IMG/VR virus record: IMGVR_UViG_3300017752_000150 | Location: 1-24,803 of that record | Length of the DNA stretch: 24,803 nucleotides | Reading direction: 5' to 3' (one strand) | Origin: a virus | Program-made: the position numbers and the translations under genes | Shown: positions 2,211 through 23,343 of the stretch, piece by piece | Layout: each line of letters starts with the position of its first letter | Position numbering within the stretch: position 1 is the stretch's first letter | Notes under the pieces: generated by a model | Seen by the model: the letters and a program-made list of their open reading frames with translations, nothing else | Database searches by the model: none | What the model was told of the DNA's origin: nothing

Positions 2211-5200
2211 ATGGCATTGACCAGAATTAAAACCAACCAGATTACTGACCTAGCAGTGACTACAGCAAAACTTGCTGCAAACGCTGTTACAGCAGCTAAA
2301 CTGGAAAACAACCTTACCTATGGCAGTGATTTTACTGTTTCAGGTAACCTTACAGTTTCGGGTACTACAACAAGTGTTAGTACAACAAATACTCGCGTTG
2401 AAGATGCAATTATTGCACTAAGCGCAGAAGCAAGTGGATCAGCAAGTGTAGACAGTGGTCTACTTATCAACCGTGGTTCAGATGATAACCAAGCATTCCT
2501 TTGGGATGAAAGTGCAGATCAATTTATTGTTGCTAACGTAGGCAGTGAAGATGGTGATACAGCAGGTAACGTTAGTGTTAGCAGTTACGCTGGATTGCAA
2601 GCAGGTGCAGTTGTTTATGGTTCATTAAATGATGGAACAACAACGCTTACAAGCACAGCGGCAGAACTTAATCTAATTGATGGCTCGAGTGCAGGCACAA
2701 TTGTAAACAGCAAAGCAGTAATTTACGGATCAAGCGGTGAAGTAAACGCAACCACACTACAGATTGCTGGCACTTCAATCACTGCAACTGCAGCAGAACT
2801 TAACATCATGGATGGTGATGCTACAGTAAGCACAGATGCTTTTGCTTCTGGTGACGGACTTGTAACAAATGATGCTGGCACTATGAAACAAACTAGTGTC
2901 GATACTTTAGATACATATCTGTCAGCAAGTACAAAAACACTTACAAACAAAACTATTGACAGTGCAAGTAATACACTTACATTGGATCTAAGTGAAGGTA
3001 CACTAACAGGTACAACTGCAGAATTTAACAGTGCAATAAGTGATGACAGTTTTGCTACATTAGCAGGTACAGAAACACTAACAAACAAAACACTTACTGC
3101 TCCAAAAATTGCAAGTGGCGGCTTTATTGCTGATGCAAACGGTAACGAACTTGTTATCTTTACAACAACAGCAAGTGCAGTCAACGAAATTACACTAGCA
3201 AACGCGGCAGCAAGTGGTCATCCAACTATTACCACAACAGGTAGTGACACAAACATCAACCTAGTACTAAGTCCAAAAGGTTCTGGTACAATTGACGCTA
3301 GTACAAGTAAAATTGTAAATGTTACTGATCCAACAGCAAACCAAGATGCTGCAACAAAATCATATGTTGACAGTCAGGTTACTGGTGGTTCTACACTTGC
3401 TATTGCTGGTGACAGTGGTACAGACAACGTTGTTGTTGGTACTAACACATTTACATTTAGTGGTACTTCAAATGAAATCGTTACAGCGGTAACAGACAAC
3501 ACAGTAACTATTAGTTTGCCAGATGATGTAACAATTGGCGGTGATGCAATTGTTACAGGTAACTTGACAGTTAACGGTACTACAACTACAATTTCAACAA
3601 CAAACAGTGTGGTTAGTGATAACTTGATCGAACTTAACAACGGTGCAGGTTCAAACGCTAACGATAGTGGTATTGTTATTGAACGTGGTTCAACAGGCGA
3701 CAATGCTATCTTTGCATGGGACGAAAGTGCAGACAAGTTTACACTTGGTACAACAACAGCAACAGGTGATAGTACTGGTGATTTAAGCATTACAACAGGT
3801 ATACTAGTTGCAAATATTGAAGGTAATGTCACAGGTAATGTAACTGGTAGTGCAGATACACTAACAACAGCAAGAGCAATTGCATTAACAGGTGATGTAA
3901 CTGGTACTGCTAACTTTGATGGTAGTGCAGGTATTAGTATTGCAGCAACTATTGCTGCCAACAGCGTTGCACTTGGCACTGACACAACTGGTGATTATAC
4001 TGCAACTATTACAGGCGGCAATGGTATTGCGTCAACTGGTGCTACATCAGGTGAAGGCATTGCACATAGTCTAAGTGTTGACTTAACTGACACAGCAATC
4101 TTTGCTAGTGACGGTACAGCAAGTCGTGCAGTGGTACTAGACGGAAGTGGTGACTTTACAGCAAGTACAGGTACATTCACTAACATGGATGGTATTATTG
4201 GTGCAAACACAGCTGCAGCAGGTAGTTTCACAACAGTTGGTACAACTGGTGAAGCAACACTAGCAAGTGCTATTGTAAGTGACTTGACTGCAACTCGCAT
4301 TGTATTTGCAGGCTCAAGTGGTGCTCTTGAAGATAGTGCAAACTTGGTATTTGCTAGTAACTCACTAGATGTTACAGGTGCTATTACTGCAACTGGTAAT
4401 ATTGACATTGCAGATGCTGGCTCACTTAGAGTTGGTACAGGCAATGACTTTACTATTAACCATGATGCCACAAACACTACAATTACAAACGGCACAGGCA
4501 TACTTGCTATTGACGGTGCAGCAACAAGTGCTATCCGTATTAACGAAGCAGGCGCAAACGTTGACTTTGTTGTAGAAGGTGATAGTAACACTGGATTGAT
4601 TACAGTTGATGCAAGTGGCGACAACGTTGGTATTGGTGGAGCACCAAACGCAAACGTAGTATTTGACATTAACGACACAGGTGCAATGAAACTTGCAGTT
4701 GGTACAACTGCACAGCGTCCAGGAACTGGTGTAACAGGTATGTTCCGTTATAACTCAACTACTAACCAGATTGAATATTATGACAACGCAGGTTGGGAAA
4801 GTGTTAGTACAGCATTTACACTTGCTAGTTCACAAACATTTAACGGTGATGATAGTACTGTAGCATTTACACTAAGCGCACTAAGTGGTGCAGATAGTTA
4901 TACTGTTGCTGGTGTACTTGTTATGCTAAACGGTGTGGTACAAGAGCCAACAACTGTTTATGGTATTAGTGGTACAACACTAACATTTACAACTGCTCCT
5001 GCAACAGGTGACTTGATTGAAGTGCGTAAATTCACTACAACAACAACTGTAGTTGCAATTGCAGATAGTGATGGTGATACACAGATCCAAGTTGAAGAAA
5101 CAAGTGACGAAGATGTTATCCGCTTTGATGTTGCTGGCTCACAGATTGCTAGTATTACAAGTGCTGGAATCGTAATGGACTCTGGTAAAACACTAGATGG

Positions 5201-5585
5201 TACAGCAACAAGCGCACAATACGCTGACTTGGCTGAGATGTACGCAGCAGACGAGGAAATTGCTCCTGGTACTGTTGTACACTTTGCAGGCGAAGGCAAA
5301 CTAGCAGCATGCGATATTGAAAACTGTCGTTCAGTTGCAGGTATTGTAAGTACTGATCCAGCATACTTGATGAACAGTGTGCAGGAAGGTGTTGCACTTG
5401 CACTAGCAGGTCGTGTTCCAACTAAAGTAACTGGTGCAGTAGCAGCAGGTGACTTGATGGTATCAGCAGGCAACGGTATGGCAATGGCTAATAACGAAGC
5501 AGCAATGGGTACAGTAATTGGTAAAGCAATCGAAGCACATGAAGGCGGCGAAGGCGTTATTGAAGTACTAGCACTTATGATGTAA
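2211..5585 (+). CDS. Large modular fibre-like protein with Peptidase_G2-like C-terminus (1124 aa)
   Basis: Starts at ATG 2211 behind an ACGGAG site. Residues ~35-125 and ~443-535 are an internal duplication: GNLTV(S/N)GTTT, then (N/R)G or ERG, then WDESAD(Q/K)F. Between and after them lie repeats common in marine phage fibres: TAAELN.(I/M)DG (about residues 147 and 195) and TLTNKT(L/I). Residues ~835-870 carry an AQRPG...GMFRYN module and ~880-950 a GDDSTVAFTL module, both shared with the 378-aa protein upstream. Residues ~1000-1124 (AQYADLAEMYAADEE..., GIVSTDPAYLMN) resemble the self-cleaving Peptidase_G2/chaperone-type domain of phage appendages and are paralogous to the 185-aa protein at 7636. 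Probable host-recognition or whisker-like fibre; receptor unknown. Followed by a strong terminator. Confidence 0.8.
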   Translation: MALTRIKTNQITDLAVTTAKLAANAVTAAKLENNLTYGSDFTVSGNLTVSGTTTSVSTTNTRVEDAIIALSAEASGSASVDSGLLINRGSDDNQAFLWDESADQFIVANVGSEDGDTAGNVSVSSYAGLQAGAVVYGSLNDGTTTLTSTAAELNLIDGSSAGTIVNSKAVIYGSSGEVNATTLQIAGTSITATAAELNIMDGDATVSTDAFASGDGLVTNDAGTMKQTSVDTLDTYLSASTKTLTNKTIDSASNTLTLDLSEGTLTGTTAEFNSAISDDSFATLAGTETLTNKTLTAPKIASGGFIADANGNELVIFTTTASAVNEITLANAAASGHPTITTTGSDTNINLVLSPKGSGTIDASTSKIVNVTDPTANQDAATKSYVDSQVTGGSTLAIAGDSGTDNVVVGTNTFTFSGTSNEIVTAVTDNTVTISLPDDVTIGGDAIVTGNLTVNGTTTTISTTNSVVSDNLIELNNGAGSNANDSGIVIERGSTGDNAIFAWDESADKFTLGTTTATGDSTGDLSITTGILVANIEGNVTGNVTGSADTLTTARAIALTGDVTGTANFDGSAGISIAATIAANSVALGTDTTGDYTATITGGNGIASTGATSGEGIAHSLSVDLTDTAIFASDGTASRAVVLDGSGDFTASTGTFTNMDGIIGANTAAAGSFTTVGTTGEATLASAIVSDLTATRIVFAGSSGALEDSANLVFASNSLDVTGAITATGNIDIADAGSLRVGTGNDFTINHDATNTTITNGTGILAIDGAATSAIRINEAGANVDFVVEGDSNTGLITVDASGDNVGIGGAPNANVVFDINDTGAMKLAVGTTAQRPGTGVTGMFRYNSTTNQIEYYDNAGWESVSTAFTLASSQTFNGDDSTVAFTLSALSGADSYTVAGVLVMLNGVVQEPTTVYGISGTTLTFTTAPATGDLIEVRKFTTTTTVVAIADSDGDTQIQVEETSDEDVIRFDVAGSQIASITSAGIVMDSGKTLDGTATSAQYADLAEMYAADEEIAPGTVVHFAGEGKLAACDIENCRSVAGIVSTDPAYLMNSVQEGVALALAGRVPTKVTGAVAAGDLMVSAGNGMAMANNEAAMGTVIGKAIEAHEGGEGVIEVLALMM
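2311..2590 (+). repeat. Fibre module copy 1 (internal duplication)
   Basis: This stretch encodes the GNLTVSGTTT...WDESADQF module of the 1124-aa fibre protein. A second copy lies at about 3537-3815 in the same gene, and the WDESAD part appears again at about 5770-5910 in the next gene. Similarity is clear at protein level and partial at DNA level. Confidence 0.65.
3537..3815 (+). repeat. Fibre module copy 2 (internal duplication)
   Basis: Second copy of the GNLTV(S/N)GTTT...WDESAD module in the 1124-aa fibre protein, about 1.2 kb downstream of copy 1, in the same frame. It differs from copy 1 at many synonymous and some coding positions, so the duplication is not recent. Confidence 0.65.
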
Positions 5586-7635: not shown

Positions 7636-8193
7636 ATGCCTACAGTATTACAGTTTCGTAGAGGAACAACAGCACAAAATAATAGTTTTACCGGCGCAGC
7701 CGGCGAACTCAGTATCGACGCAGACGTGGATAGTATTCGCGTACATGATGGTTCAACAGCAGGCGGCTTTGAAACAAACGCGAAGCAAGCACAATACGCT
7801 GACGTTGCAGAACGCTATCGTGCAGACGCTGAATATGATCCAGGTACACTGCTAGTGTTTGGTGGTGAGGCTGAAATTACTATTAGTGCAGAAAAATATA
7901 GTAAACGTATTGCTGGTATTGTCAGTACTGATCCTTACTGTGTAATGAACAGTCCAAAAGACGAACGCAATGATCCAACTTTTCCTGCGATGGCATTGCT
8001 AGGTCGTGTTCCTGCACTAGTAATAGGCGAAGTACGCAAAGGTGACTTGATGGTTGCTAGTGACACTCCTGGTCACGCAGAAGCATGGCGTGACGAAAGC
8101 AATCCTCCTGCAGGCAGTGTGGTTGGAAAAGCAGTAGAAGATAAAACTGGCGCAAGTGCTGGAGAGATAGAAATATCAGTCGGCAGGCTTTAA
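7636..8193 (+). CDS. Short appendage protein with fibre N-motif and Peptidase_G2-like domain (185 aa)
   Basis: Start at 7636 follows AGGAG with normal spacing. The first ~45 residues (LQFRRGTTAQNNSFTGAAGE, then D.DVDSIRVHDGST) are the short beta motif found at the N-terminus of many phage fibre and tropism-determinant proteins. Residues ~52-185 (AQYADVAERYRADAEYDPG, RIAGIVSTDPYCVMN, LLGRVPALV, GDLMVAS) are clearly paralogous to the last ~125 residues of the 1124-aa fibre protein. That domain type is an intramolecular chaperone or self-cleaving (Peptidase_G2-like) domain in other phage appendages. Without the long shaft, this may be a stand-alone cap or trimerisation unit. Function is inferred from the family; cleavage is not shown. 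Confidence 0.75.
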   Translation: MPTVLQFRRGTTAQNNSFTGAAGELSIDADVDSIRVHDGSTAGGFETNAKQAQYADVAERYRADAEYDPGTLLVFGGEAEITISAEKYSKRIAGIVSTDPYCVMNSPKDERNDPTFPAMALLGRVPALVIGEVRKGDLMVASDTPGHAEAWRDESNPPAGSVVGKAVEDKTGASAGEIEISVGRL

Positions 8194-8194
8194 G

Positions 8195-8941
8195 ATGCCT
8201 GCAGGAAAGTTTTACACAGCAGACTATTTAGGTGAAATGGTCAGTGTAAATACCAGTTGGCGTGATCGTAACAATCCTGACAGCATGACTTGGATTGAAA
8301 AATCTATTATTAATGATGATCATGATAGCGTTGCACATGTTATAGGCAACAGCAAATCTCGACACAAGTTTGATTTAAATTTACTTAAAGGGCAAGTAGG
8401 TGGTGCTAAAGGTGTGCGCAGTGTAGGACAAAGTTACGGATGTAACTTGTTATATAAAGACTTTAATCCAACATTTTTAATTGCTACAAATAAGCATATT
8501 TGTAGTGAAATTGCTGATAGTGATTACACTAAAGAAAATATTGTTTACAGCAACGTCAAAAACATACTTGCACATCCAAATAGTTTTCATCTATATCCTA
8601 AGATGTTTACTGCAAGCACAGGTACTCTTGCACTACGTCTTGCATGTGCCGACGGGCACGAGCAAGTGTTTATGGTAGGTATGACCTGCTATGATAAAGA
8701 AGATGATAACATTTACATTGGCAAACACGATGCATATAACGAAATGAATGTTGAGAGTTCAAATGCAAAGCTCATTCAAGAAACATGTAAAATATTTCTT
8801 TCATACAGTGATGTTGAGTTTTATTATGTAGCAACTGATATGGGATTAATGCCAGAAGCCTATAACTGGTGTCCTAATGTTAAAGAAATAACTTACCTTC
8901 AATACTATAATCTAGCAGGATTAGGCGCTATTGCACATTAA
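8195..8941 (+). CDS. Unrecognised Rossmann-like protein, possibly DUF115/GT42 glycosyltransferase-like (248 aa)
   Basis: The ATG lies one base after the stop of the preceding fibre gene, with only a weak ribosome site (GGCAGG), so translation is probably coupled. A hydrophobic strand followed by GNSKSR (residues ~51-56), then CNLLYKDFNPTFLIATN and TASTGTLALRLACADG.EQVFMVGM, gives the alternating alpha/beta pattern of a nucleotide-binding fold. The layout (GN.x.S/R, a CN..Y segment, then a TG...A.A...G...V...G.D/T segment) is reminiscent of GT42 sialyltransferases and DUF115/MptE-like proteins. That resemblance is from memory of family patterns and is weak. The position at the end of the fibre cluster suggests glycan-related modification. 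The 3' end overlaps the convergent Nudix gene by 21 bases. Confidence 0.7.
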   Translation: MPAGKFYTADYLGEMVSVNTSWRDRNNPDSMTWIEKSIINDDHDSVAHVIGNSKSRHKFDLNLLKGQVGGAKGVRSVGQSYGCNLLYKDFNPTFLIATNKHICSEIADSDYTKENIVYSNVKNILAHPNSFHLYPKMFTASTGTLALRLACADGHEQVFMVGMTCYDKEDDNIYIGKHDAYNEMNVESSNAKLIQETCKIFLSYSDVEFYYVATDMGLMPEAYNWCPNVKEITYLQYYNLAGLGAIAH

Positions 8942-9388
8942 TGCTTCAACTGTTTTAATTTTATCAACAATCTCATCAATCTGAAATGTAGTAAACACAC
9001 CAGGGTGCAGAGGTTTGGGCCATGCATCCAGTTTACTCCATGCATAACCTTTGTGTTCATCGTTTAGTTTAGGAATAAATTCATCTTCTACTACACATAC
9101 ATAGGTACTGTATGTAAAGTTATTCTTGCTGTTAGTAAACTTTTCTACTGGGATAGTTTTGAGTACCAGTGGCATAAAGCCAATTTCTTCAACAATCTCA
9201 CGCTGTAGCGCAGTATATTCTGTTTCACCTTCTTCTACTTTGCCGCCAACAAACGCCCACATGCTATTATACCTAGCACCGTTACGCAGCACAAACATAT
9301 ATCTACTGGTTGATTTACTTAGAAATAACGATCCAACACTACTGTTAGATAACGATGCTCCAGTCGCCTGCTTGATATTCGCCTTCAT
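8921..9388 (-). CDS. Nudix hydrolase (155 aa)
   Basis: A complete Nudix box GX5EX7REUXEEXGU runs from Gly49 to Phe71 (GKVEEGE, REIVEEIGF), which marks a Mg2+-dependent hydrolase of nucleoside diphosphate-X compounds. The first strand pair (VGSLFLS, YMFVLRN) precedes it as in the family, which supports the ATG at 9388 rather than an internal start. That start lies inside the end of gp15, giving a 44-base overlap in another frame, and the ribosome site is weak, so expression is probably coupled to gp15. The substrate cannot be predicted; phage relatives act on dNTP derivatives, ADP-ribose or dinucleoside polyphosphates. The gene's 3' end overlaps the convergent gene at 8195-8941 by 21 bases. 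Confidence 0.9.
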   Translation of the reverse strand: MKANIKQATGASLSNSSVGSLFLSKSTSRYMFVLRNGARYNSMWAFVGGKVEEGETEYTALQREIVEEIGFMPLVLKTIPVEKFTNSKNNFTYSTYVCVVEDEFIPKLNDEHKGYAWSKLDAWPKPLHPGVFTTFQIDEIVDKIKTVEALMCNSA

Positions 9389-10730
9389 AGCTCTTGACCC
9401 ATTCTGTTCCAGTCCACTTGTACTGAAGTCCTGTATTTACATTAGTCATATAGTGTACACCCAAATCGGTACTACTGTCAAATGCAACTTGCCAATTGGT
9501 GCCGTTATATTCCACAATATCGTTAGCACCTGCTACTAAATCTCCCCAAGCATCAGATCCATCTGTGTTGCTTGCATTTCCTATATCGTTTAAGAAAAGA
9601 TAACGCTGTCCTAGAGTAGCACTAGCAAGACCTGCATCAGGCGCACTGCGCAAAGGATTAATAATTTTTGTTACTGCGGGTAAATCATTTGTTGGGATAG
9701 TATCGCTTTGTACTGTCCATAGTAGTTTGTGTGGATCACTAGGATGGAAAGCAACTGTTCCTATTATTTCTGCGGTGCCTTGTTCTAAACGCAATTGACT
9801 AATACCACTTTGTAGTTCACCATACTGGTTTATAAGTGCTGCCCAACTGACATCATCTGTGCCTACTTTTAATGGCGGATCATCTAGCGGTGTATAATCT
9901 ACTTTGTTGGTGCTTGTTTCATTGCGATCAAGTATTTGTACAGTGTTACCTAATAGTATAATTCCAAAGTTCATTGGCGTAAATTTCATACGCTCACCTA
10001 GTAGTATTTGTCCATCAATAACACCATCTGCAATGCCGCCTTGATCATCATATATACTAGCAACAATCTTGTTAATAACACCAAGTTTTTTAACTTTTGC
10101 AGGTGCAGTTAACCAAATTGGAACAGTAAACTGTAGTGTAGCAATATCAATTTGTTCATCAACACCAACTGGAACACTTCTGCTACTAAATTGTACATTT
10201 GCAAGTTCAATATAACTTAAACTTGTCCAGTCAAGATAGTTGTCAGTGCTTTGTATTTCAAGTGCAGGATTAAACAATACAAGTATTTGTTCTAATAATT
10301 GTAGTTTTTGAGTAGTGTTACTGGTCCAAATATCTACGTTCATTTGCAGTGTATAAGGAACAGGCATTGCACGCTCTACAGTAAAAGCATTACCTTGCTG
10401 TGTGTTATATTCATTTGTATTTGGATCAAACTTGCGCATACGGATATGCTTTTTATCAACAAACGTTGGATCCTGTCTTCGCTCTGCATTATATTCTAGT
10501 CCTGCCATATAACAACTGATCATAGGCGTTGGAATGATTTTGTTCTCACTGTTCTCACGGATAAGATTACTCACCATACGAGTACTATCACCATACTTAA
10601 CTGGTACAGTTGTAAGTGTTGTATTGCCAGATCTATCCTTGCCATACTCTACTTGAAAGTTACTAAATGCACGAATAAACTGCAGTAGGAAACGTCTAAT
10701 TTGTTGATCGTAAAAAAACTGTTGTGGCAT
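9345..10730 (-). CDS. 15: Tail sheath stabiliser / tail terminator gp15 (461 aa)
   Basis: The N-terminus (MPQQFFYDQQIRRFLLQF, FSNFQVEYG, TTVPVKYGDSTRM) follows the T4 gp15 pattern: FYN..FRR..., FSNIQI, then a V(P)I.Y..... segment. Residues ~125-225 (PYTLQMNVDIWTSN, QLLEQILVLFNPALEI, ATLQFTVPIWL) match the conserved middle. gp15 forms the hexamer that caps the contracted-competent sheath and tube and joins tail to neck. At 461 residues it is much longer than T4 gp15 (about 270). The extra C-terminal ~200 residues include a GQRYLFLND...W.DLVAGANDIVEYNG.NW element like modules seen in phage fibres. Its start overlaps the gp14 stop by one base (TAATG on the minus strand), so the two are one operon. 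Confidence 0.85.
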   Translation of the reverse strand: MPQQFFYDQQIRRFLLQFIRAFSNFQVEYGKDRSGNTTLTTVPVKYGDSTRMVSNLIRENSENKIIPTPMISCYMAGLEYNAERRQDPTFVDKKHIRMRKFDPNTNEYNTQQGNAFTVERAMPVPYTLQMNVDIWTSNTTQKLQLLEQILVLFNPALEIQSTDNYLDWTSLSYIELANVQFSSRSVPVGVDEQIDIATLQFTVPIWLTAPAKVKKLGVINKIVASIYDDQGGIADGVIDGQILLGERMKFTPMNFGIILLGNTVQILDRNETSTNKVDYTPLDDPPLKVGTDDVSWAALINQYGELQSGISQLRLEQGTAEIIGTVAFHPSDPHKLLWTVQSDTIPTNDLPAVTKIINPLRSAPDAGLASATLGQRYLFLNDIGNASNTDGSDAWGDLVAGANDIVEYNGTNWQVAFDSSTDLGVHYMTNVNTGLQYKWTGTEWVKSYEGEYQAGDWSIVI

Positions 10731-13859: not shown

Positions 13860-14615
13860 ATGGCAACACTAGCAAGTTTAAGAGCAGACACAACTGATTA
13901 CATTCGCTTTCGATTAGGCGATGGCATGGTTGATGTTGAACTCGATCCAGAACACTATGACAATAGCATTGATAAGGCAGTAAAACGTTTTCGTCAACGC
14001 AGTCAAAATGCTTATGAAAGCTCATATGTATTCTTAAGTGTTGTCAAAGAGCAGCAAGAGTACACACTACCAGACGAGATTGAAGAAGTGCGTCAAGCAT
14101 TTAGACGCAGTGTTGGTAGTGGATCAAGTGATACTGGTACACAATTTGAACCGTTTGAAGCAGCGTTTCAAAACACTTACTTGTTACAAAGTGGACGTAT
14201 TGGTGGCATGGCAACATATGAAATGTACTATCAGTATCAAGAACTAAGTGCAAGATTATTTGGTGGCTTTATTAACTTTGAATTTAATCCTGTAACAAAA
14301 AAACTTACACTGCTTCGTAAATTCAGCGGAGACGGTGAACAGATTGTGCTATGGACATATAACCTACGTCCTGAAGCAAGATTGCTACAAGACAGGCATG
14401 CTGGTCCATGGGTACAAGACTATGCACTAGCACTTGCAAAGTATACACTAGGTGAAGCTCGTAGTAAGTTTAGTACTATTGCAGGACCACAAGGTGGCAC
14501 AAGTCTTAACGGTGATGCACTTAAAGCAGAAGCACAGGTTGAAATAGATAAACTTGATGAAGAACTACGCAACTATGTTGATGGTAGCGATCCCCTTTCA
14601 TTTATTATAGGTTAA
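13860..14615 (+). CDS. 13: Neck protein gp13 (251 aa)
   Basis: The N-terminus (TDYIRFRLGDGMVDVELDPE, then YDNSIDKAVKRF) follows the T4 gp13 pattern, LKDVILRRLG...I.VELT.DQIYDCIQRAL. It is followed by a YVFLSV strand and a EYTLPDEIEEVRQAFR segment. gp13 joins gp14 in the neck ring that seals the packaged head and accepts the tail. At 251 residues it is slightly shorter than T4 gp13 (~309). The C-terminal helix-rich part (QDYALALAKYTLGEARSKFS, then EAQVEIDKLDEELRNYVDG) is typical of head-tail adaptor proteins that pack against the portal. It has its own late promoter and AGGAA ribosome site. Unlike T4, gp14 and gp15 are about 2 kb away on the opposite strand. Confidence 0.85.
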   Translation: MATLASLRADTTDYIRFRLGDGMVDVELDPEHYDNSIDKAVKRFRQRSQNAYESSYVFLSVVKEQQEYTLPDEIEEVRQAFRRSVGSGSSDTGTQFEPFEAAFQNTYLLQSGRIGGMATYEMYYQYQELSARLFGGFINFEFNPVTKKLTLLRKFSGDGEQIVLWTYNLRPEARLLQDRHAGPWVQDYALALAKYTLGEARSKFSTIAGPQGGTSLNGDALKAEAQVEIDKLDEELRNYVDGSDPLSFIIG

Positions 14616-14618
14616 ATT

Positions 14619-15320
14619 ATGTTAAAATTTTTCCGCTGGCAAGGCGGCTATGGCGGTGATACAATACTTGCCTCAATTTTATCTGTAAACGATGATCTAA
14701 TATCTAATATTAATAGTATCAAATTACAAAACAATGGTCGTTCTTACGCTACGTCCAACAAAGAACATGTTCTAAGTGAACTAGCACATGCAAACATATC
14801 AAGTGACATAGCATTGATAGAACAACGCATTGAAAAAACAATCAATGATAGTAAAACTCATATTATAAAAAATCATTGTTACATGCCATTTATGGACAAA
14901 TACAGCAACTATATGGTTGATATTGTGAGTACAAACAACTTATTAAGTTTTACCACTAGTGCTAATTTTAACAAAAACTATGAAATTACATCAAATTTTT
15001 TACGAGATTCGGATAAATTTTATAAAGTCTTAGAGCAAAAAGACAAACACGAGGCTGACAACTATATGTTATATCAGATTGCAGTCAGTCACTATAGACA
15101 TAATGCTAAACAACACCAATCAAAAAACAAAATAGTTCTAGACAAATGGATAGATAGGCAATATAATACTATATTAGGATATGAATTTAGCAAAGATATC
15201 TTAGATCAATGGATAGAAAAAAACCAATATTTACTGAACAGAAGTAATATAAAAATTGAAAAAATTTGTGATTTGGTAAAACAAGAAATGCCATATAATA
15301 AAATAAGGAAACTTATATGA
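14619..15320 (+). CDS. Unrecognised AT-rich gene, possible P-loop/sulfotransferase-like protein (233 aa)
   Basis: Not firmly recognised. The N-terminus FFRWQGGYGGDTILASIL is a strand, a Gly-rich turn with G-D-T and a helix, resembling the phosphate-binding loop of sulfotransferase or kinase-like proteins but lacking the Walker Lys. KTHIIKNHCY (about residues 79-88) would fit the second sulfotransferase strand. The remainder is Asn, Lys, Ile and Tyr-rich and helical. Base composition is visibly more AT-rich than gp13 before it and gp1 after it, with many AAA, AAT and ATA codons, which suggests a recent arrival. It starts 3 bases after gp13 without a clear Shine-Dalgarno site, and its TGA overlaps the next ATG (ATGA). 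Confidence 0.75.
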   Translation: MLKFFRWQGGYGGDTILASILSVNDDLISNINSIKLQNNGRSYATSNKEHVLSELAHANISSDIALIEQRIEKTINDSKTHIIKNHCYMPFMDKYSNYMVDIVSTNNLLSFTTSANFNKNYEITSNFLRDSDKFYKVLEQKDKHEADNYMLYQIAVSHYRHNAKQHQSKNKIVLDKWIDRQYNTILGYEFSKDILDQWIEKNQYLLNRSNIKIEKICDLVKQEMPYNKIRKLI

Positions 15321-15934
15321 TTATCGGAATTTGCGGACTGATTGGTTCTGGTAAAGGAACTGCAGGTGATGTGCTAGTTGATCAAGGCTTTACTAAAGTA
15401 AGTTTTGCTGACAAACTAAAAGATGGCGTAAGCACAATCTTTGGTTGGGATAGAGCATTGCTAGAAGGAGACACAGATGAGTCAAGAGCTTGGCGAGAAC
15501 GAAGAGACGACTTTTGGACTGATGAAACGAAAATGGAAATCACTCCTAGGTTGGTTCTTCAGTTATTTGGTACTGATTGTATGCGTAATGGCTTCGATGA
15601 CGGAATCTGGGTAAGCCTACTTAAAAAACAAATACTTGAAAATCCAGGTAACTATGTAATTCCCGATGTGCGTTTCCGCAACGAACAACAAATGATTCGT
15701 GACATTGGCGGAGAAATTTGGTGGGTGCAACGCGGCGAATTACCTGAATGGTGGGGCAGTGCTGTTGTAGACAATAACACCGGTACCAAACTAATGATGG
15801 GTTATGATGTCCATGCTAGTGAATACAAGTGGGCAGATACAAATGATAAATTTGACGAAATAATCTATAACAATGATAGTATAGATACACTTAGAGGTCA
15901 GGTTTTAAGTCACCTCGGGACCATCCCGTACTAA
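15317..15934 (+). CDS. 1: Deoxynucleoside monophosphate kinase, T4 gp1-like (205 aa)
   Basis: A Walker A loop GLIGSGKGT (residues 7-15) directly follows the first strand MIIGIC. Next come VSFADKLKDGVSTIFGWD, a stretch with ETKMEITPRLVLQLFGTD, and VIPDVRFRNEQQ, which carries the D-x-R-F-x-N-E pattern of the T4 gp1/phage dNMP kinase family. The enzyme phosphorylates dNMPs (in T4 including modified dCMP) to dNDPs for phage DNA synthesis in the cytoplasm. Its length is close to that of T4 gp1 (241). The ATG overlaps the upstream TGA (ATGA), implying coupled translation. The last 44 bases overlap the convergent zinc-protein gene. Confidence 0.9.
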   Translation: MIIGICGLIGSGKGTAGDVLVDQGFTKVSFADKLKDGVSTIFGWDRALLEGDTDESRAWRERRDDFWTDETKMEITPRLVLQLFGTDCMRNGFDDGIWVSLLKKQILENPGNYVIPDVRFRNEQQMIRDIGGEIWWVQRGELPEWWGSAVVDNNTGTKLMMGYDVHASEYKWADTNDKFDEIIYNNDSIDTLRGQVLSHLGTIPY

Positions 15935-16223
15935 TTAGTTCGGCATTGCAATTCAAGCAAACTGTTTTAAGATTGCGATTGCTAACATTATTTAAATTTC
16001 CATCAATATAAAACACAGTGACTTGCACTCTAAGTGTAGGTTTAAATCCACATGCTTCGCATGTACGCTTGACTTTATACCCACTATCTACCCATAATGG
16101 TTTTACAGGTTTATGTAATTTTAAACACTGTTCGCACTTCTTTCTGTAAAAGACACGATCGTCTTTGTGATAGTTGATTGCTCTAGGACGTTGTCCACAT
16201 GTCTCACAAATAGGGCGTTGCAT
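15891..16223 (-). CDS. Zinc-binding degenerate HNH-like protein (110 aa)
   Basis: Four CxxC knuckles (Cys6/9, 30/33, 55/58, 89/92) predict two zinc sites. Between the last two lies FYIDGNLNNVSNRNL (71-85), which has the D-G-N..N...NL spacing of HNH nucleases. However, the expected His before IDG is Tyr72 and the expected final His after the last CxxC is Asn93. It is therefore an HNH-like scaffold that has probably lost catalysis, and may bind DNA or RNA. I recall similar short proteins in marine T4-like phages, without known function. It is convergent with dNMP kinase, sharing 44 bases. The start at 16223 has no strong ribosome site. Confidence 0.75.
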   Translation of the reverse strand: MQRPICETCGQRPRAINYHKDDRVFYRKKCEQCLKLHKPVKPLWVDSGYKVKRTCEACGFKPTLRVQVTVFYIDGNLNNVSNRNLKTVCLNCNAELISTGWSRGDLKPDL

Positions 16224-16330: not shown

Positions 16331-18049
16331 ATGGCACTAATATCACCGGGTGTAGAAGTTACAGTTATTGATGAAAGTAATTATGCACCATCAGCAGCAG
16401 GCACAGTAGCAGCGATTGTTATTGCAACTGCACAAGATAAAACAAGTGGAACTGGCTCAGGCACTGCGGCAGGAACAACTGCAGCAAATGCTGGCAACAC
16501 ATACTTGATTGGAAGCCAGAGAGAACTAACAAGTACTTTCGGAAATCCAACATTTTACAACACTGCATCAGGATCACCGATTAATGGTTACGAACTTAAT
16601 GAATATGGCTTGATGGCAGCATACAGTTTACTCGGTGTAAGTAACAGAGCATATGTTATCCGTGCAGACATTGACCTTGCTGAACTAGCAAGCAGTACAA
16701 GTCGTCCGCTGGGTAATCCAACAGGCGGCACAGTTTGGTGGGATGTAAGTTCAGACACACGCTGGGGAATTTTTGAATGGAATGCAAGCACAGGTGCATT
16801 TACTAACAAAGTTCCAACAGTAATCACAAGTACAACTGATCTAACAGGCGGTGTTCCAAAAACTTCAATTGGTGCAATTGGTGATTATGCATTGGTTGCA
16901 ACAAATACTAGCAATCCTGTATACTACAAGAACCGCAGCAATGCTTGGGTACTAGTAGGAAGTTCAGCATGGCAGGTTGCACATGCAACAATTGCTGGCA
17001 CAGTAGCAAGCACAGGTAACGATTTTACAATTGGTAACAGCATTGACATCAATGGCTCAACTGTAACCACAACTGCACAAACACTGGCAGGTCTAGTTAG
17101 TGACATTAACACTGCAGCAATTACAGGCGTAACTGCCGCGGCAGTTGATAATAAAATTGAACTTTATGCAACTAGTGCCGCAGCAAGTGAGCAGATTATT
17201 CTTGCTAACAATACTGGTACAATCCTCACAGATGCAGGTTTGACAGCAGGTACATATGCAAGACCAAAGATTGCACAAGATCCACATTACACTGTCCCAG
17301 CATGGAAGTCAACAGATACAACACCTCGTCCAACAGGTAGTGTATGGGCAAAGACAACACAAAGTAATTTAGGATTTTTAGCAGACGTTAGTACATATAG
17401 TACTAGTACTGCATCGTTTACATCTAGTAGTGCTCCGTCATACACAAATGACCAAACTGCACTTAAGAATCTCGATGTAACAGGCGGCAGTGCAATCACA
17501 GCAGGTAGTTTTTATGTACAGTATGATGTAACTGAAAATGATACAGTAACATACAAATTGTTTAAGCGTTACAGTTCAGGTGCATTAGATGTTGTAGGTT
17601 TAGTAAATGCAGCAGCTCCGATTACTGGCAGTGAAACATTTACAATCCAAGCCAGTGTTGCAAACAGTGAAACACTTTCAACTGCAGTTCAAGTAACAAC
17701 AAGTGGCACAAGTATTGCAGACATTGCAAGTGACATTAACGGCGCAAACGTTGCAAACGTTAGTGCAAGTGTTAATAGTGCTGGATATCTTAAAATTACA
17801 CATGCACTAGGCGGTGTAATTGTTCTTAAAGATACAAGCGGTACACCAATTGCAGATGCAGGTATTACAACAAGTATTACAACTGGTCAGGTTCGTGATG
17901 GCAATGATAGTAATCTTATCCTAAGTAACTGGATTGCTGATACATACACTGCAGCATCAAGCGCACCAAGTGCTAATCCAGCAGACAATGCATACTGGTA
18001 TGCTGGTGGATTTGAAACAGACATTCTAGTACATGATGGCACAACTTGA
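16331..18049 (+). CDS. 18: Tail sheath protein gp18, N-terminal part up to in-frame TGA (572 aa)
   Basis: The ATG at 16331 follows GAGGA; an upstream in-frame TTG (16316) lacks a site and is not favoured. The start ALISPGVEVTVIDESNY is the classic contractile-sheath N-terminus. YLIGSQRELTSTFGNPTFYN and NEYGLMAAYSLLGVSNRAYV (to about residue 115) are conserved sheath segments. Gp18 polymerises around the gp19 tube and contracts on infection. Two inserted domains each contain a D-I-N-x-A type motif (LAGLVSDINTAAITGV about residue 255; IADIASDINGANVANV about 465), similar to the IN motif of flagellar hook-associated proteins. The frame stops at TGA 18047-18049 in the context DGTT-stop-RGYQ, but coding continues in the same frame for 498 codons. 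Confidence 0.88.
   Translation: MALISPGVEVTVIDESNYAPSAAGTVAAIVIATAQDKTSGTGSGTAAGTTAANAGNTYLIGSQRELTSTFGNPTFYNTASGSPINGYELNEYGLMAAYSLLGVSNRAYVIRADIDLAELASSTSRPLGNPTGGTVWWDVSSDTRWGIFEWNASTGAFTNKVPTVITSTTDLTGGVPKTSIGAIGDYALVATNTSNPVYYKNRSNAWVLVGSSAWQVAHATIAGTVASTGNDFTIGNSIDINGSTVTTTAQTLAGLVSDINTAAITGVTAAAVDNKIELYATSAAASEQIILANNTGTILTDAGLTAGTYARPKIAQDPHYTVPAWKSTDTTPRPTGSVWAKTTQSNLGFLADVSTYSTSTASFTSSSAPSYTNDQTALKNLDVTGGSAITAGSFYVQYDVTENDTVTYKLFKRYSSGALDVVGLVNAAAPITGSETFTIQASVANSETLSTAVQVTTSGTSIADIASDINGANVANVSASVNSAGYLKITHALGGVIVLKDTSGTPIADAGITTSITTGQVRDGNDSNLILSNWIADTYTAASSAPSANPADNAYWYAGGFETDILVHDGTT
18047..18049 (+). other. In-frame TGA inside the tail sheath gene
   Basis: This is the only stop between the sheath start (16331) and its natural TAA (19544-19546). 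Frame, codon use and homology continue on both sides. The next base is A (TGAA), a context known to favour UGA readthrough in E. coli. A TGG (Trp) is the likely ancestral codon. Confidence 0.9.
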
Positions 18050-19546
18050 AGAGGTTATCAAAATATAACTGACACACGAGGCTTTGCACTAGCAGATACA
18101 GATCCAGCAGGTGTTATCTTTAGCACAACAGAGCCTACTGTACAAAGTGATAATACTGTACTTGTAAATGGTGATCTGTGGATTGATACAAGTGATCTTG
18201 AGAACTATCCTGCACTTTACAGACGCGAAACTGTAAGTGGTGAAGCACGTTGGGTTGCAATTGATAAAACAGACAACACAACTGAAAATGGTATTATTTT
18301 CGGTGATGCACGTTTTATGGGCGATACAACAACAGACGTTGTAACTGGCACAATTCCGACAACTGCAAGTCTACTAACAATTGATACATTAGACATTGAC
18401 AGACCTGATCCAACAATTTATCCACGTGGTATGTTGTTGTTTAACACAAGACGTAGTACATATGGTGTAAAGCAGTTCAAGAGTGATTACTTCTCACGCA
18501 CTAACTTTAGTGACACAACTACATATCCAACGCTTCCTACAGAAAAGGATGCATGGGTAACACAGAGTGGTAGTACATTTGGACGCAAAGCAGTTCGTAA
18601 TATTATTTCAACTGCAATGAAATCTGCACTTGATGCAAGCACAGAGCTTCGTGAAGATGCAAGAATCTTTAACACTATTGCAGCACCAGGTTATCCAGAG
18701 CTAATTAGTAACATGGTAAGCCTAAACAACGACAGACGCCAAACAGCGTTTGTAGTAGGCGATAGCCCAATGAGACTAGCGTCAACAAGCACTGCTATTG
18801 AAAACTGGGCAACAAATGCATCAGTAGCATCAGACAACGGTGAAGATGGACTAGTAACTAGTGATCCATACCTGGGTGTGTTTTATCCGGCTGCAACAAC
18901 AAATGATTTAAGTGGCAACACAATTGTTGTTCCAGCAAGTCATATGATGTTACGCACAATTGCTAGAAGTGACGATATTAGTTTCCCATGGTTTGCACCA
19001 GCAGGCACAAGACGTGGACTAGTAGACAATGTTGCAAGTATTGGCTACATCAACAGTGCAACAGGCGCATTTGTTAATGACAACGTTCGCGAGAGTGTAA
19101 GAGATACACTGTATACAAACAGAGTTAATCCAATTGCATTCTTTAACGGTAGTGGAATTCTTAACTATGGTAACAAGACTCGTGCAGGCACAACAAGTGC
19201 GCTAGATCGCATTAACGTTGCTAGACTAGTTGGATATCTAAGACGTCAACTACAAACAATTGCAACAGGGTTTGTGTTTGAACCAAACGATAAGATTACT
19301 AGAGACGAGCTAAAGCAGCAAGTTGAACAGACACTTAACGATTTGGTAGCAAAGCGCGGCGTATTTGATTACTTGGTAGTTTGTGATGAAACTAATAACA
19401 CACCAGGCAGAATTGATCGTAACGAACTATACGTTGATGTTGCTATTGAACCTACTAAGGCTGCGGAATTTATCTTTATTCCAATCAGACTTAAAAACAC
19501 AGGTGAGATTGCAAGCGGAAACGTAGCGGCAGCAAGCACAGTTTAA
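18050..19546 (+). CDS. 18: Tail sheath protein gp18, C-terminal part after the TGA (498 codons)
   Basis: The same reading frame as the N-terminal part stays open from 18050 to TAA 19544-19546. The first Met is only at codon 90 (18317), with no ribosome site, so a separate protein starting there is unlikely. The sequence right after the TGA (RGYQNITDTRGFALADTDPA, then GDLWIDTSDLENYPALYR) is typical of gp18. The C-terminal part (PDPTIYPRGMLLFNTRRS, SPWFAPAG-like FPWFAPAGTRRGLV, VNPIAFFNGSGI, then the DYLVVCDETNNT and VDVAIEPTKAAEFIFIPIRL end) is the highly conserved sheath core that binds the tube and neighbouring subunits. Without it the sheath cannot function. Full length with readthrough would be 1071 residues, larger than T4 gp18 (659). 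Confidence 0.85.
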   Translation, partial: RGYQNITDTRGFALADTDPAGVIFSTTEPTVQSDNTVLVNGDLWIDTSDLENYPALYRRETVSGEARWVAIDKTDNTTENGIIFGDARFMGDTTTDVVTGTIPTTASLLTIDTLDIDRPDPTIYPRGMLLFNTRRSTYGVKQFKSDYFSRTNFSDTTTYPTLPTEKDAWVTQSGSTFGRKAVRNIISTAMKSALDASTELREDARIFNTIAAPGYPELISNMVSLNNDRRQTAFVVGDSPMRLASTSTAIENWATNASVASDNGEDGLVTSDPYLGVFYPAATTNDLSGNTIVVPASHMMLRTIARSDDISFPWFAPAGTRRGLVDNVASIGYINSATGAFVNDNVRESVRDTLYTNRVNPIAFFNGSGILNYGNKTRAGTTSALDRINVARLVGYLRRQLQTIATGFVFEPNDKITRDELKQQVEQTLNDLVAKRGVFDYLVVCDETNNTPGRIDRNELYVDVAIEPTKAAEFIFIPIRLKNTGEIASGNVAAASTV

Positions 19547-19641: not shown

Positions 19642-20259
19642 ATGTCAGTTTCATCATTAACAAAATTTACAGTACCTATTGACGGTGATCAAAGCGCAGC
19701 AAGTCAAGGCTTGCTTATGCCAAAACTTAAATATCGCTTCCGTGCGTCATTTGAAAACTTTGGTATTAGCACACCTCGTACAGAGATGACAAAGCAAGTA
19801 ATGAATATTACTCGCCCTGCAGTGACATTTGAAGAGTCAATGATTGAGATTTATAATAGTAAAGTTTACCTAGCAGGTAAGCATACTTGGGATCCAATTA
19901 CAGTCAATCTACGCGACGATGTCAATGGTGGTGTAACTAAATTGTGCGGAGAGCAAATCCAAAAGCAGTTTGATTTCATGGAGCAAAGTAGTGCTAGTTC
20001 AGGTATTGATTACAAGTTTGTAACACGTTTTGAACTACTAGACGGTGGCAACGGAGCAAATGCACCAAGTGTACTTGAAACTTGGGAACTATACGGTTGT
20101 TTTGTGCAGAACATCAACTACAATGATTTAGATTATGCATCACAAGAGCCAGTACAGATTACAATGAGTATTAGATTTGATAATGCTGTACAAACACCAC
20201 TTGGTGACGGTATTGGTTCAGCAGTAGCGAGAACACTAGGTCAAACTATTACTGGCTAA
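19642..20259 (+). CDS. 19: Tail tube protein gp19 (205 aa)
   Basis: Located directly after the sheath gene. KLKYRFRASFENFGI, a NITRPAVTFEESMIEIYNSK segment, GKHTWDPITVNLRDDVNG and the ending ETWELYGCFVQNINYNDLDY with PVQITMSIRFDNAVQ form the known gp19 tail-tube fold: a beta-barrel with the W.PI.V.LRDD and WEL.GC.(V/I).. signatures. It stacks as hexamers inside the sheath to make the DNA conduit. It is slightly longer than T4 gp19 (163 residues), mostly through N- and C-terminal extensions. The start has AGGAG at nine bases, and a dedicated late promoter implies high-level expression. The next gene begins 15 bases after its stop. Confidence 0.92.
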   Translation: MSVSSLTKFTVPIDGDQSAASQGLLMPKLKYRFRASFENFGISTPRTEMTKQVMNITRPAVTFEESMIEIYNSKVYLAGKHTWDPITVNLRDDVNGGVTKLCGEQIQKQFDFMEQSSASSGIDYKFVTRFELLDGGNGANAPSVLETWELYGCFVQNINYNDLDYASQEPVQITMSIRFDNAVQTPLGDGIGSAVARTLGQTITG

Positions 20260-21481: not shown

Positions 21482-21853
21482 ATGTCACAATCAACTAATC
21501 TACCAATAGTTAGTCCAGCAGATAGTTTTGATCAACGTGTTCAGGATTATTTTACTAACTATTTTACATCGCCAATTAGTTTAACGGATATGGAGTATGA
21601 AGCTGCAAAAAGTTTTTTTGTAGCTCGCACTAACAACGAAGATGCCGCCGCCGCTCTAACTGCTGCAGTCATACAAGCATCTAATGAACTTAATATTTAC
21701 ATCGTAGATATTATCAAAGAATTTGAACAAAGTAGTGATCTTAAAAGTGCAGTTCCTACGTTTTTAAATCTAAGTAGAAGGACTACAAGTCTACTTGGAT
21801 ATGAAGCAAATATTACACCAAATGAGAACATAGCACGCCAAGTGAGTGCATAA
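21482..21853 (+). CDS. Small acidic virion-associated protein of unknown function (123 aa)
   Basis: Not recognised. It starts one base after the preceding stop with a weak ribosome site and ends in a TAATG overlap with gp4, so it is translationally tied to both neighbours. It is mostly helical, with an Asp/Ser/Thr-rich N-terminus (residues 1-40), a helical AKSFFVARTNN...AAALTAAVIQASN segment and an acidic C-terminus. No Cys, metal or membrane motif. Position between a tube-fold protein and a head-completion protein suggests a tail or head assembly factor. Confidence 0.7.
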   Translation: MSQSTNLPIVSPADSFDQRVQDYFTNYFTSPISLTDMEYEAAKSFFVARTNNEDAAAALTAAVIQASNELNIYIVDIIKEFEQSSDLKSAVPTFLNLSRRTTSLLGYEANITPNENIARQVSA

Positions 21854-22293
21854 TGTTTAGTCGTAACAAATATGCCAATGGTGTATATACTATTACAAAT
21901 CCAGACAAATATAGTGGAAATAAAGCACCTCGATATAGAAGTGGTTGGGAACATGCATTTATGCGTTTCTGCGACAATAATCCAAGTGTAATAAGTTGGG
22001 CAAGTGAAGCAATACAAATACCTTATCGTAATCCACTTACAGGAAAAGGTACAGTATATGTGCCAGACTTTATTGTAATGTATCAGGACAAACGTGGAAA
22101 CAAACATGCAGAACTTATAGAAATAAAGCCTAAAGCACAGACCATGTTAACAGAAAAAACTCGTGAAAAAGAAAAACTTGCAATTGCTATTAATCATGCT
22201 AAATGGGAAGCCGCTGCTAAATGGGCAAAGCATAAAGGATTGCGATTTAGAGTTGTAACCGAAGACGATATTTTTCACAATGGTAAACGCTAA
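21853..22293 (+). CDS. 4: Head completion protein gp4, PD-(D/E)XK-like (146 aa)
   Basis: RSGWEHAFMRFCDNNPSVI, WASEAIQIPYRNP and VYVPDFIVMY match the T4 gp4 (gp50/65) head completion family in sequence and length (T4 about 150 residues). Glu33, Asp72 (in VPDF) and Glu90-x-Lys92 (EIKP) have the order and spacing of a TnsA/PD-(D/E)XK nuclease active site. The family acts after DNA packaging to make heads competent for tail joining; whether it cuts DNA is not settled by the sequence. The start overlaps the preceding stop (TAATG), and the next gene gp16 begins 14 bases after its stop behind AAGGA. Confidence 0.85.
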   Translation: MFSRNKYANGVYTITNPDKYSGNKAPRYRSGWEHAFMRFCDNNPSVISWASEAIQIPYRNPLTGKGTVYVPDFIVMYQDKRGNKHAELIEIKPKAQTMLTEKTREKEKLAIAINHAKWEAAAKWAKHKGLRFRVVTEDDIFHNGKR

Positions 22294-22851: not shown

Positions 22852-23343
22852 ATGAAAAGTTTTAAGAGTTATCTTGTAGAGAGCGAACAAACATACAAGT
22901 TTCGCATTAAACTAGCAAATATGCTAGATGAAGAAACAATGGACGCACTGGAATCTGCACTTGACAAATATGAAGTTGCAAGTGTAAGCAAGCCAAAGAA
23001 AACTCCAATCCAAGAACATCCAATGGATTTTCAGACTCTGCAAAACGCAGAAGTGGATATTATGGACACTGAACTAAAGTATCCTGTAACTGCACATCAA
23101 CTATATGAATATATCAGTCAAACAATTGGTGTACCTGCAAGTCATTTGGTAGTGATTAACAGTGATCATCCTGAAGAGATTGCTCGTGAAGAAGCGATCA
23201 AAGAAGAAGAATATAAGTCAGTGCTTGAAACTGATTATGAAGATTCAAATAATGCTAAAGATAGTTTTGGAGATGAGTATAATGAGAACATGCTCAAAAG
23301 TCTTGAAACTCGCAAATATGAGTTTGATAAAAAGGGCGAGTGA
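22852..23343 (+). CDS. Conserved protein with capsid-targeting-like N-terminus (163 aa)
   Basis: Unrecognised beyond being of a type I recall from marine T4-like phages. The first residues MKSFKSYLVESEQ resemble the N-terminal capsid-targeting sequence of T4 internal head proteins (MKTYQEFIAEA). They contain LVE-S (residues 8-11), a fit to the gp21 prohead-protease consensus (I/L)xE before a small residue. Residues ~15-105 form a compact alpha/beta domain (YKFRIKLANMLDEETMDALE, then KYPVTAHQLYEYISQTIGVP), perhaps ferredoxin-like. The last 55 residues are very acidic and probably disordered. It could be an internal head or core protein. The TGA overlaps the next ATG. Confidence 0.75.
   Translation: MKSFKSYLVESEQTYKFRIKLANMLDEETMDALESALDKYEVASVSKPKKTPIQEHPMDFQTLQNAEVDIMDTELKYPVTAHQLYEYISQTIGVPASHLVVINSDHPEEIAREEAIKEEEYKSVLETDYEDSNNAKDSFGDEYNENMLKSLETRKYEFDKKGE

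What the first reader, a model, noticed from the sequence alone, without database searches (positions are those of the whole stretch)
18047..18049. Single in-frame TGA interrupts the tail sheath gene
The sheath frame (16331 to TAA at 19546) is broken only by TGA at 18047-18049. The 498 codons after it are in the same frame, with normal codon use and the essential conserved C-terminal sheath core. The downstream Met at 18317 has no ribosome site and would lose 89 conserved-looking codons. The codon most likely replaces TGG (Trp): sheath relatives, from memory, have a W-(R/K)-G-Y here. The next base is A, a context known to raise UGA readthrough by normal tRNA-Trp in E. coli. Options are an assembly or sequencing error, an inactivating or conditional mutation, a minority allele in a population genome, or real readthrough giving a short and a long sheath. 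A major structural protein needing full-length copies makes efficient readthrough demanding, so error or polymorphism is the default.
Basis: partly seen in the sequence, partly recalled or inferred. Interest (0 to 1): 0.72.

Follow-up and report, generated by a model that had tools for sequence, protein, structure and literature searches.

The report
Isolated nonsense codon in phage sheath gene
One contig of an uncultured phage carries a single stop codon inside its tail sheath gene where every related phage examined has a tryptophan codon, which is best read as a sequencing or assembly error or a lone defective variant and not as a programmed signal.

Summary
The TGA at 18047-18049 is real in the record. 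It is the only in-frame stop between the sheath ATG (16331) and TAA (19544-19546), and the only in-frame TGA in any of the 22 genes I listed. It replaces an invariant tryptophan: all 222 fetched loci that span the position (62 distinct sequences) carry TGG. A degenerate scan of IMG/VR found the motif with TGG in 70 contigs and with TGA in none. No other in-frame stop occurs in 177,218 aligned residues of about 80 related contigs.

The 498 codons after the TGA are as constrained as in relatives: 19% of codon differences to the closest relative change an amino acid. The gp18-like sheath core lies wholly after the TGA, so a product ending there would not be a usable sheath protein. I found no sign of recoding: TGA ends two other genes, no tRNA gene was found in the window or seven longer relatives, no stable RNA structure follows, the following base varies among relatives, and the possible internal start (Met663) is Ile in 14 of 31.

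Best reading: a private single-base nonsense change, more likely an error than a real defective allele. Readthrough is not excluded but nothing supports it.

The parts
16331..19546 (+). tail sheath gene, 1071 codons if codon 573 is read as an amino acid; ATG start, TAA stop
   Evidence: phrog_10581 tail sheath on both sides; full-length relatives of 1069-1081 aa starting at the same MALISPGVEVTV
18047..18049 (+). in-frame TGA at codon 573, replacing an invariant Trp codon
   Evidence: TGG in all 222 spanning loci; W in 31 of 31 rows of alignment A1, where the window was read with table 4
18050..19543 (+). 498 codons after the TGA: rest of the sheath including the conserved C-terminal core
   Evidence: phrog_10581 and phrog_23, PF17482, gp18 structures
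18317..18319 (+). candidate internal ATG (Met663), not conserved, unlikely to be a start
   Evidence: Met in 17 and Ile in 14 of 31 aligned proteins

Best explanation
A private single-base change (G to A at 18049) turned an invariant TGG tryptophan codon of the tail sheath gene into TGA in this one assembled contig. Most likely it is a consensus error (sequencing, amplification or assembly; about 0.55). Next most likely is a real but recent loss-of-function allele, present in a minority or in dead genomes of the population (about 0.37). It is not a regulatory or recoding signal. Shown: uniqueness, the ancestral Trp, intact constraint downstream, absence of recoding hallmarks. Inferred: that it is error or allele, and which of the two.
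For: All 222 spanning loci, 62 distinct neighbourhoods, carry TGG. The degenerate IMG/VR scan gives 0 contigs with TGA and 70 with TGG. No other in-frame stop in 177,218 aligned residues of related contigs. The 498 codons after the TGA differ from closest relative L001 by 82 synonymous and 19 nonsynonymous codons, a nonsynonymous share of 0.19, at the low end of the 0.17-0.39 seen for other nearest pairs; 2 private residues, within the range of other sequences. So the frame was translated until very recently, or still is. No other gene of the window is interrupted.
Against: No reads were available, so the base itself is unverified. The collections state that records very near the window may be left out of scans, so a near-identical contig that shares the TGA could be hidden. 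The closest relative found is only 93% identical in DNA, so an older change confined to this lineage cannot be ruled out by these comparisons alone.
Confidence: 0.92

Rival explanations
1. The TGA is fixed in this phage and is read through as Trp by the host's normal tRNA-Trp, or by a suppressor tRNA, giving short and long sheath proteins or simply tolerated full-length synthesis.
For: The downstream frame is intact and constrained. UGA is known to be misread as Trp at about 1 in 15 in phage Qbeta to make minor coat protein A1 (PMC8067240). The next base is A.
Against: A sheath needs full-length copies in bulk, and every gp18-like domain lies after the TGA, unlike Qbeta, where the short product is the complete coat protein. 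No downstream structure (z -0.47, relatives similar). No tRNA gene in the window or in seven related records of 29-132 kb, all of which may be incomplete. No relative keeps the stop. The following codon is variable in relatives.
Confidence: 0.06
2. The sheath is made as two separate polypeptides, with translation restarting at Met663 (18317).
For: An in-frame ATG opens a 409-codon frame after the stop.
Against: Met663 is Ile in 14 of 31 relatives. The 89 codons that would be lost are conserved at 86%. All 46 distinct full-length relatives are single proteins of 1069-1081 aa.
Confidence: 0.01
3. The phage uses a genetic code in which TGA means tryptophan.
For: One in-frame TGA at a Trp position.
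Against: 77 TGG codons against one in-frame TGA in about 22 genes; TGA ends the genes 14619-15320 and 22852-23343. Relatives show no in-frame TGA in 177,218 residues.
Confidence: 0.005

Closest known systems
T4-type contractile tail sheath protein (gp18; PHROG 10581 and 23, PF17482)
   Same: The gene is a member by sequence: phrog_10581 at 3e-58 and 3e-146 on the two sides of the TGA, gp18 structures at 7e-30.
   Different: Longer (1071 aa against 659 for T4 gp18) with a large non-core region before residue 800. In this record the gene is cut by a stop.
Sporadic nonsense substitution in a single metagenomic contig
   Same: One base, one sequence, an invariant Trp codon, no second copy anywhere, intact flanking frame.
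   Different: Nothing distinguishes it with the data at hand.
Qbeta A1 UGA readthrough (PMC8067240)
   Same: A UGA in a phage structural gene that can in principle be read as Trp.
   Different: In Qbeta the short product is the complete coat protein and the long one is minor. Here the short product lacks the whole sheath core and no relative keeps the stop.

Membership tests
Contractile tail sheath protein (PHROG 10581 / PF17482) | Profile match of the sheath C-terminal domain above the curated cut-off | tested here: met
   PF17482 51.8 bits against cut-off 26.9; phrog_10581 E 2.6e-146
Contractile tail sheath protein (PHROG 10581 / PF17482) | Located with the tail tube and neck genes | tested here: met
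   Tube protein at 19642-20259, head closure at 21853-22293, head-tail adaptor at 13860-14615
Programmed UGA readthrough (Qbeta A1 type) | Stop conserved in relatives while the extension is coding | tested here: not met
   TGG in all 222 spanning loci; no TGA version in IMG/VR
Programmed UGA readthrough (Qbeta A1 type) | The short product is itself a functional protein | tested here: inconclusive
   The PF17482 and gp18 matches all lie after the stop; not tested by experiment
Programmed UGA readthrough (Qbeta A1 type) | Measured full-length product containing Trp at the stop | not testable with these tools
   Needs proteomics of virions
TGA-to-Trp code (tables 4/25 like) | Many in-frame TGA codons and no TGA stops | tested here: not met
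   One in-frame TGA against 77 TGG; two genes end in TGA
Suppressor-tRNA recoding phage | Phage-encoded suppressor tRNA | tested here: inconclusive
   None in the window or in seven related records, but all may be fragments
Sequencing or assembly error | Reads disagree with the consensus base | not testable with these tools
   No reads held

The most novel reading that the evidence does not exclude
The TGA is fixed in one living phage lineage, which makes its major sheath protein by efficient reading of UGA as Trp in its host, a very recent start of stop-codon recoding in an essential late gene.
Probability: 0.05. Interest if true: 0.6.

Novelty: not a real feature. Interest (0 to 1): 0.1.

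Why it matters
As it stands it matters little: it is a caution that a lone stop in a metagenomic phage contig should be checked against relatives and reads before recoding is claimed. If reads showed the TGA to be fixed in a thriving phage population, it would be a clean case of strong UGA readthrough or suppression in a major structural protein.

Tried and rejected
AlphaFold2 on the read-through protein with 31 aligned relatives gave mean pLDDT 39 and pTM 0.29. Only residues about 220-310 and 410-530 were confident, and the region around codon 573 was below 50, so it could not place the residue in a fold and no fold search was run. RNA folding downstream of the TGA showed nothing unusual. The exact-sequence scan around the site with TGR found one contig, L128, which carries TGG and is only about 72% identical in DNA overall, so it is not a copy of the same phage. 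GenBank phages have only distant relatives, best about 46-48% amino-acid identity in jumbo-type phages such as Phosso and PA5oct. A polarised test for relaxed constraint on the window branch was not significant: 16 of 53 changes nonsynonymous against 11 of 58 on the L001 branch, Fisher p 0.19. Literature searches found no report of a UGA readthrough in a tail sheath gene; the library holds open-access papers only. A genetic-code change and an internal restart were considered and rejected.

Full report
What was checked. The window is an IMG/VR virus record of 24,803 bases. The frame from ATG 16331 to TAA 19544-19546 holds exactly one internal stop, TGA at 18047-18049, codon 573. In the 22 main genes of the window it is the only in-frame stop; 77 codons are TGG, and TGA is used as the terminal stop of the genes at 14619-15320 and 22852-23343.

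What the gene is. Both sides of the TGA match the same tail sheath family, phrog_10581: profile positions 2-479 before and 496-913 after. The Pfam sheath C-terminal domain PF17482 lies at residues 955-1053 and T4-type gp18 structures match residues 804-1060. Tube, head-closure and head-tail adaptor genes are nearby. In GenBank phages the nearest relatives are about 46-48% identical in the C-terminal part, so this is an uncultured group known mainly from metagenomic contigs.

What stands at the codon in relatives. In the 79 of the first 80 IMG/VR relatives that cover the position, the codon is TGG in every one. Across all loci fetched later, 222 loci span it, in 62 distinct 123-base neighbourhoods (many loci are overlapping fetches of the same contigs), and all carry TGG. 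Trp573 is invariant in a 31-protein alignment, in which the window was read with TGA as Trp. A degenerate DNA pattern for the motif with TGA finds no contig in IMG/VR; the same pattern with TGG finds 70. The single relative in prokaryote genome contigs that covers the site, L223, also encodes Trp.

How unusual a stop is. Aligning all window proteins to the 80 related loci gave 177,218 residues with no in-frame stop and no gene split between frames. These contigs are related, so the residues are not independent, but the bound of about 1.7e-5 per codon allows roughly 0.1 such stops in a window of this size. One case in a window singled out for it needs no special mechanism.

Constraint downstream. 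Against the closest relative, L001 (93% DNA identity over 4.7 kb), the 498 codons after the TGA differ at 101 codons, 82 synonymous and 19 not. That share of 0.19 is at the low end of the 0.17-0.39 seen in other nearest pairs, and the window has 2 private residues, within the range of other sequences. When changes are assigned to branches with outgroups, the window has 16 of 53 nonsynonymous and L001 11 of 58, not significantly different (Fisher p 0.19). The frame has therefore been translated until very recently, or still is. This fits error, recent mutation and readthrough alike, and argues against an old pseudogene.

Tests for recoding. The base after the TGA belongs to a codon that is AGA, AAA, AAG, CAG, CAA or TCA in relatives that have no stop, so the UGA-A context is inherited by chance. 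The 80 bases downstream fold no better than shuffles (z -0.47) and no better than in relatives. No tRNA gene is in the window or in seven related records of 29-132 kb. The candidate internal start Met663 is Ile in 14 of 31 relatives. In Qbeta, where UGA is read as Trp about once in 15, the short product is the complete coat protein (PMC8067240); here the short product would lack every recognised sheath-core segment.

Conclusion. The best-supported account is a private G-to-A change in an invariant Trp codon, seen in one contig. I put about 0.55 on a consensus error and 0.37 on a real, recent, probably defective or minority allele; the data cannot separate them without reads. Readthrough or suppression keeps about 0.06. 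A caution applies throughout: the scans state that records very near the window may be left out, so near-identical contigs sharing the TGA could have been hidden.

Noticed in passing
14619-15320: A 233-codon gene between the head-tail adaptor and kinase genes has no Pfam or PHROG match and a counterpart in only 2 of the 80 related loci, although its neighbours are widespread; it looks like a lineage-specific insertion.
   Followed up: partly
15891-16223 (- strand): A 110-codon gene on the opposite strand with paired Cys motifs (CETCG.., CEQC, CEACG, CLNC) overlaps the end of the kinase gene just before the sheath; counterparts are in 57 of the 80 related loci, with only a weak PHROG match.
   Followed up: partly
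16331-18046: The sheath has a long region before its core; AlphaFold2 gave confident folds only for residues about 220-310 and 410-530, two similar-looking beta/alpha modules that resemble each other by eye.
   Followed up: no
2211-5585 and 7636-8193: Two tail-fibre-like genes share a similar end segment (YADLAEMYAADEEIAPGTVV / YADVAERYRADAEYDPGTLL; both match phrog_22593), and the second begins with a major tropism determinant N-terminal domain (PF18454).
   Followed up: partly
8921-9388 (- strand): A NUDIX hydrolase gene (PF00293) sits beside the sheath-stabiliser-like gene at 9345-10730.
   Followed up: partly
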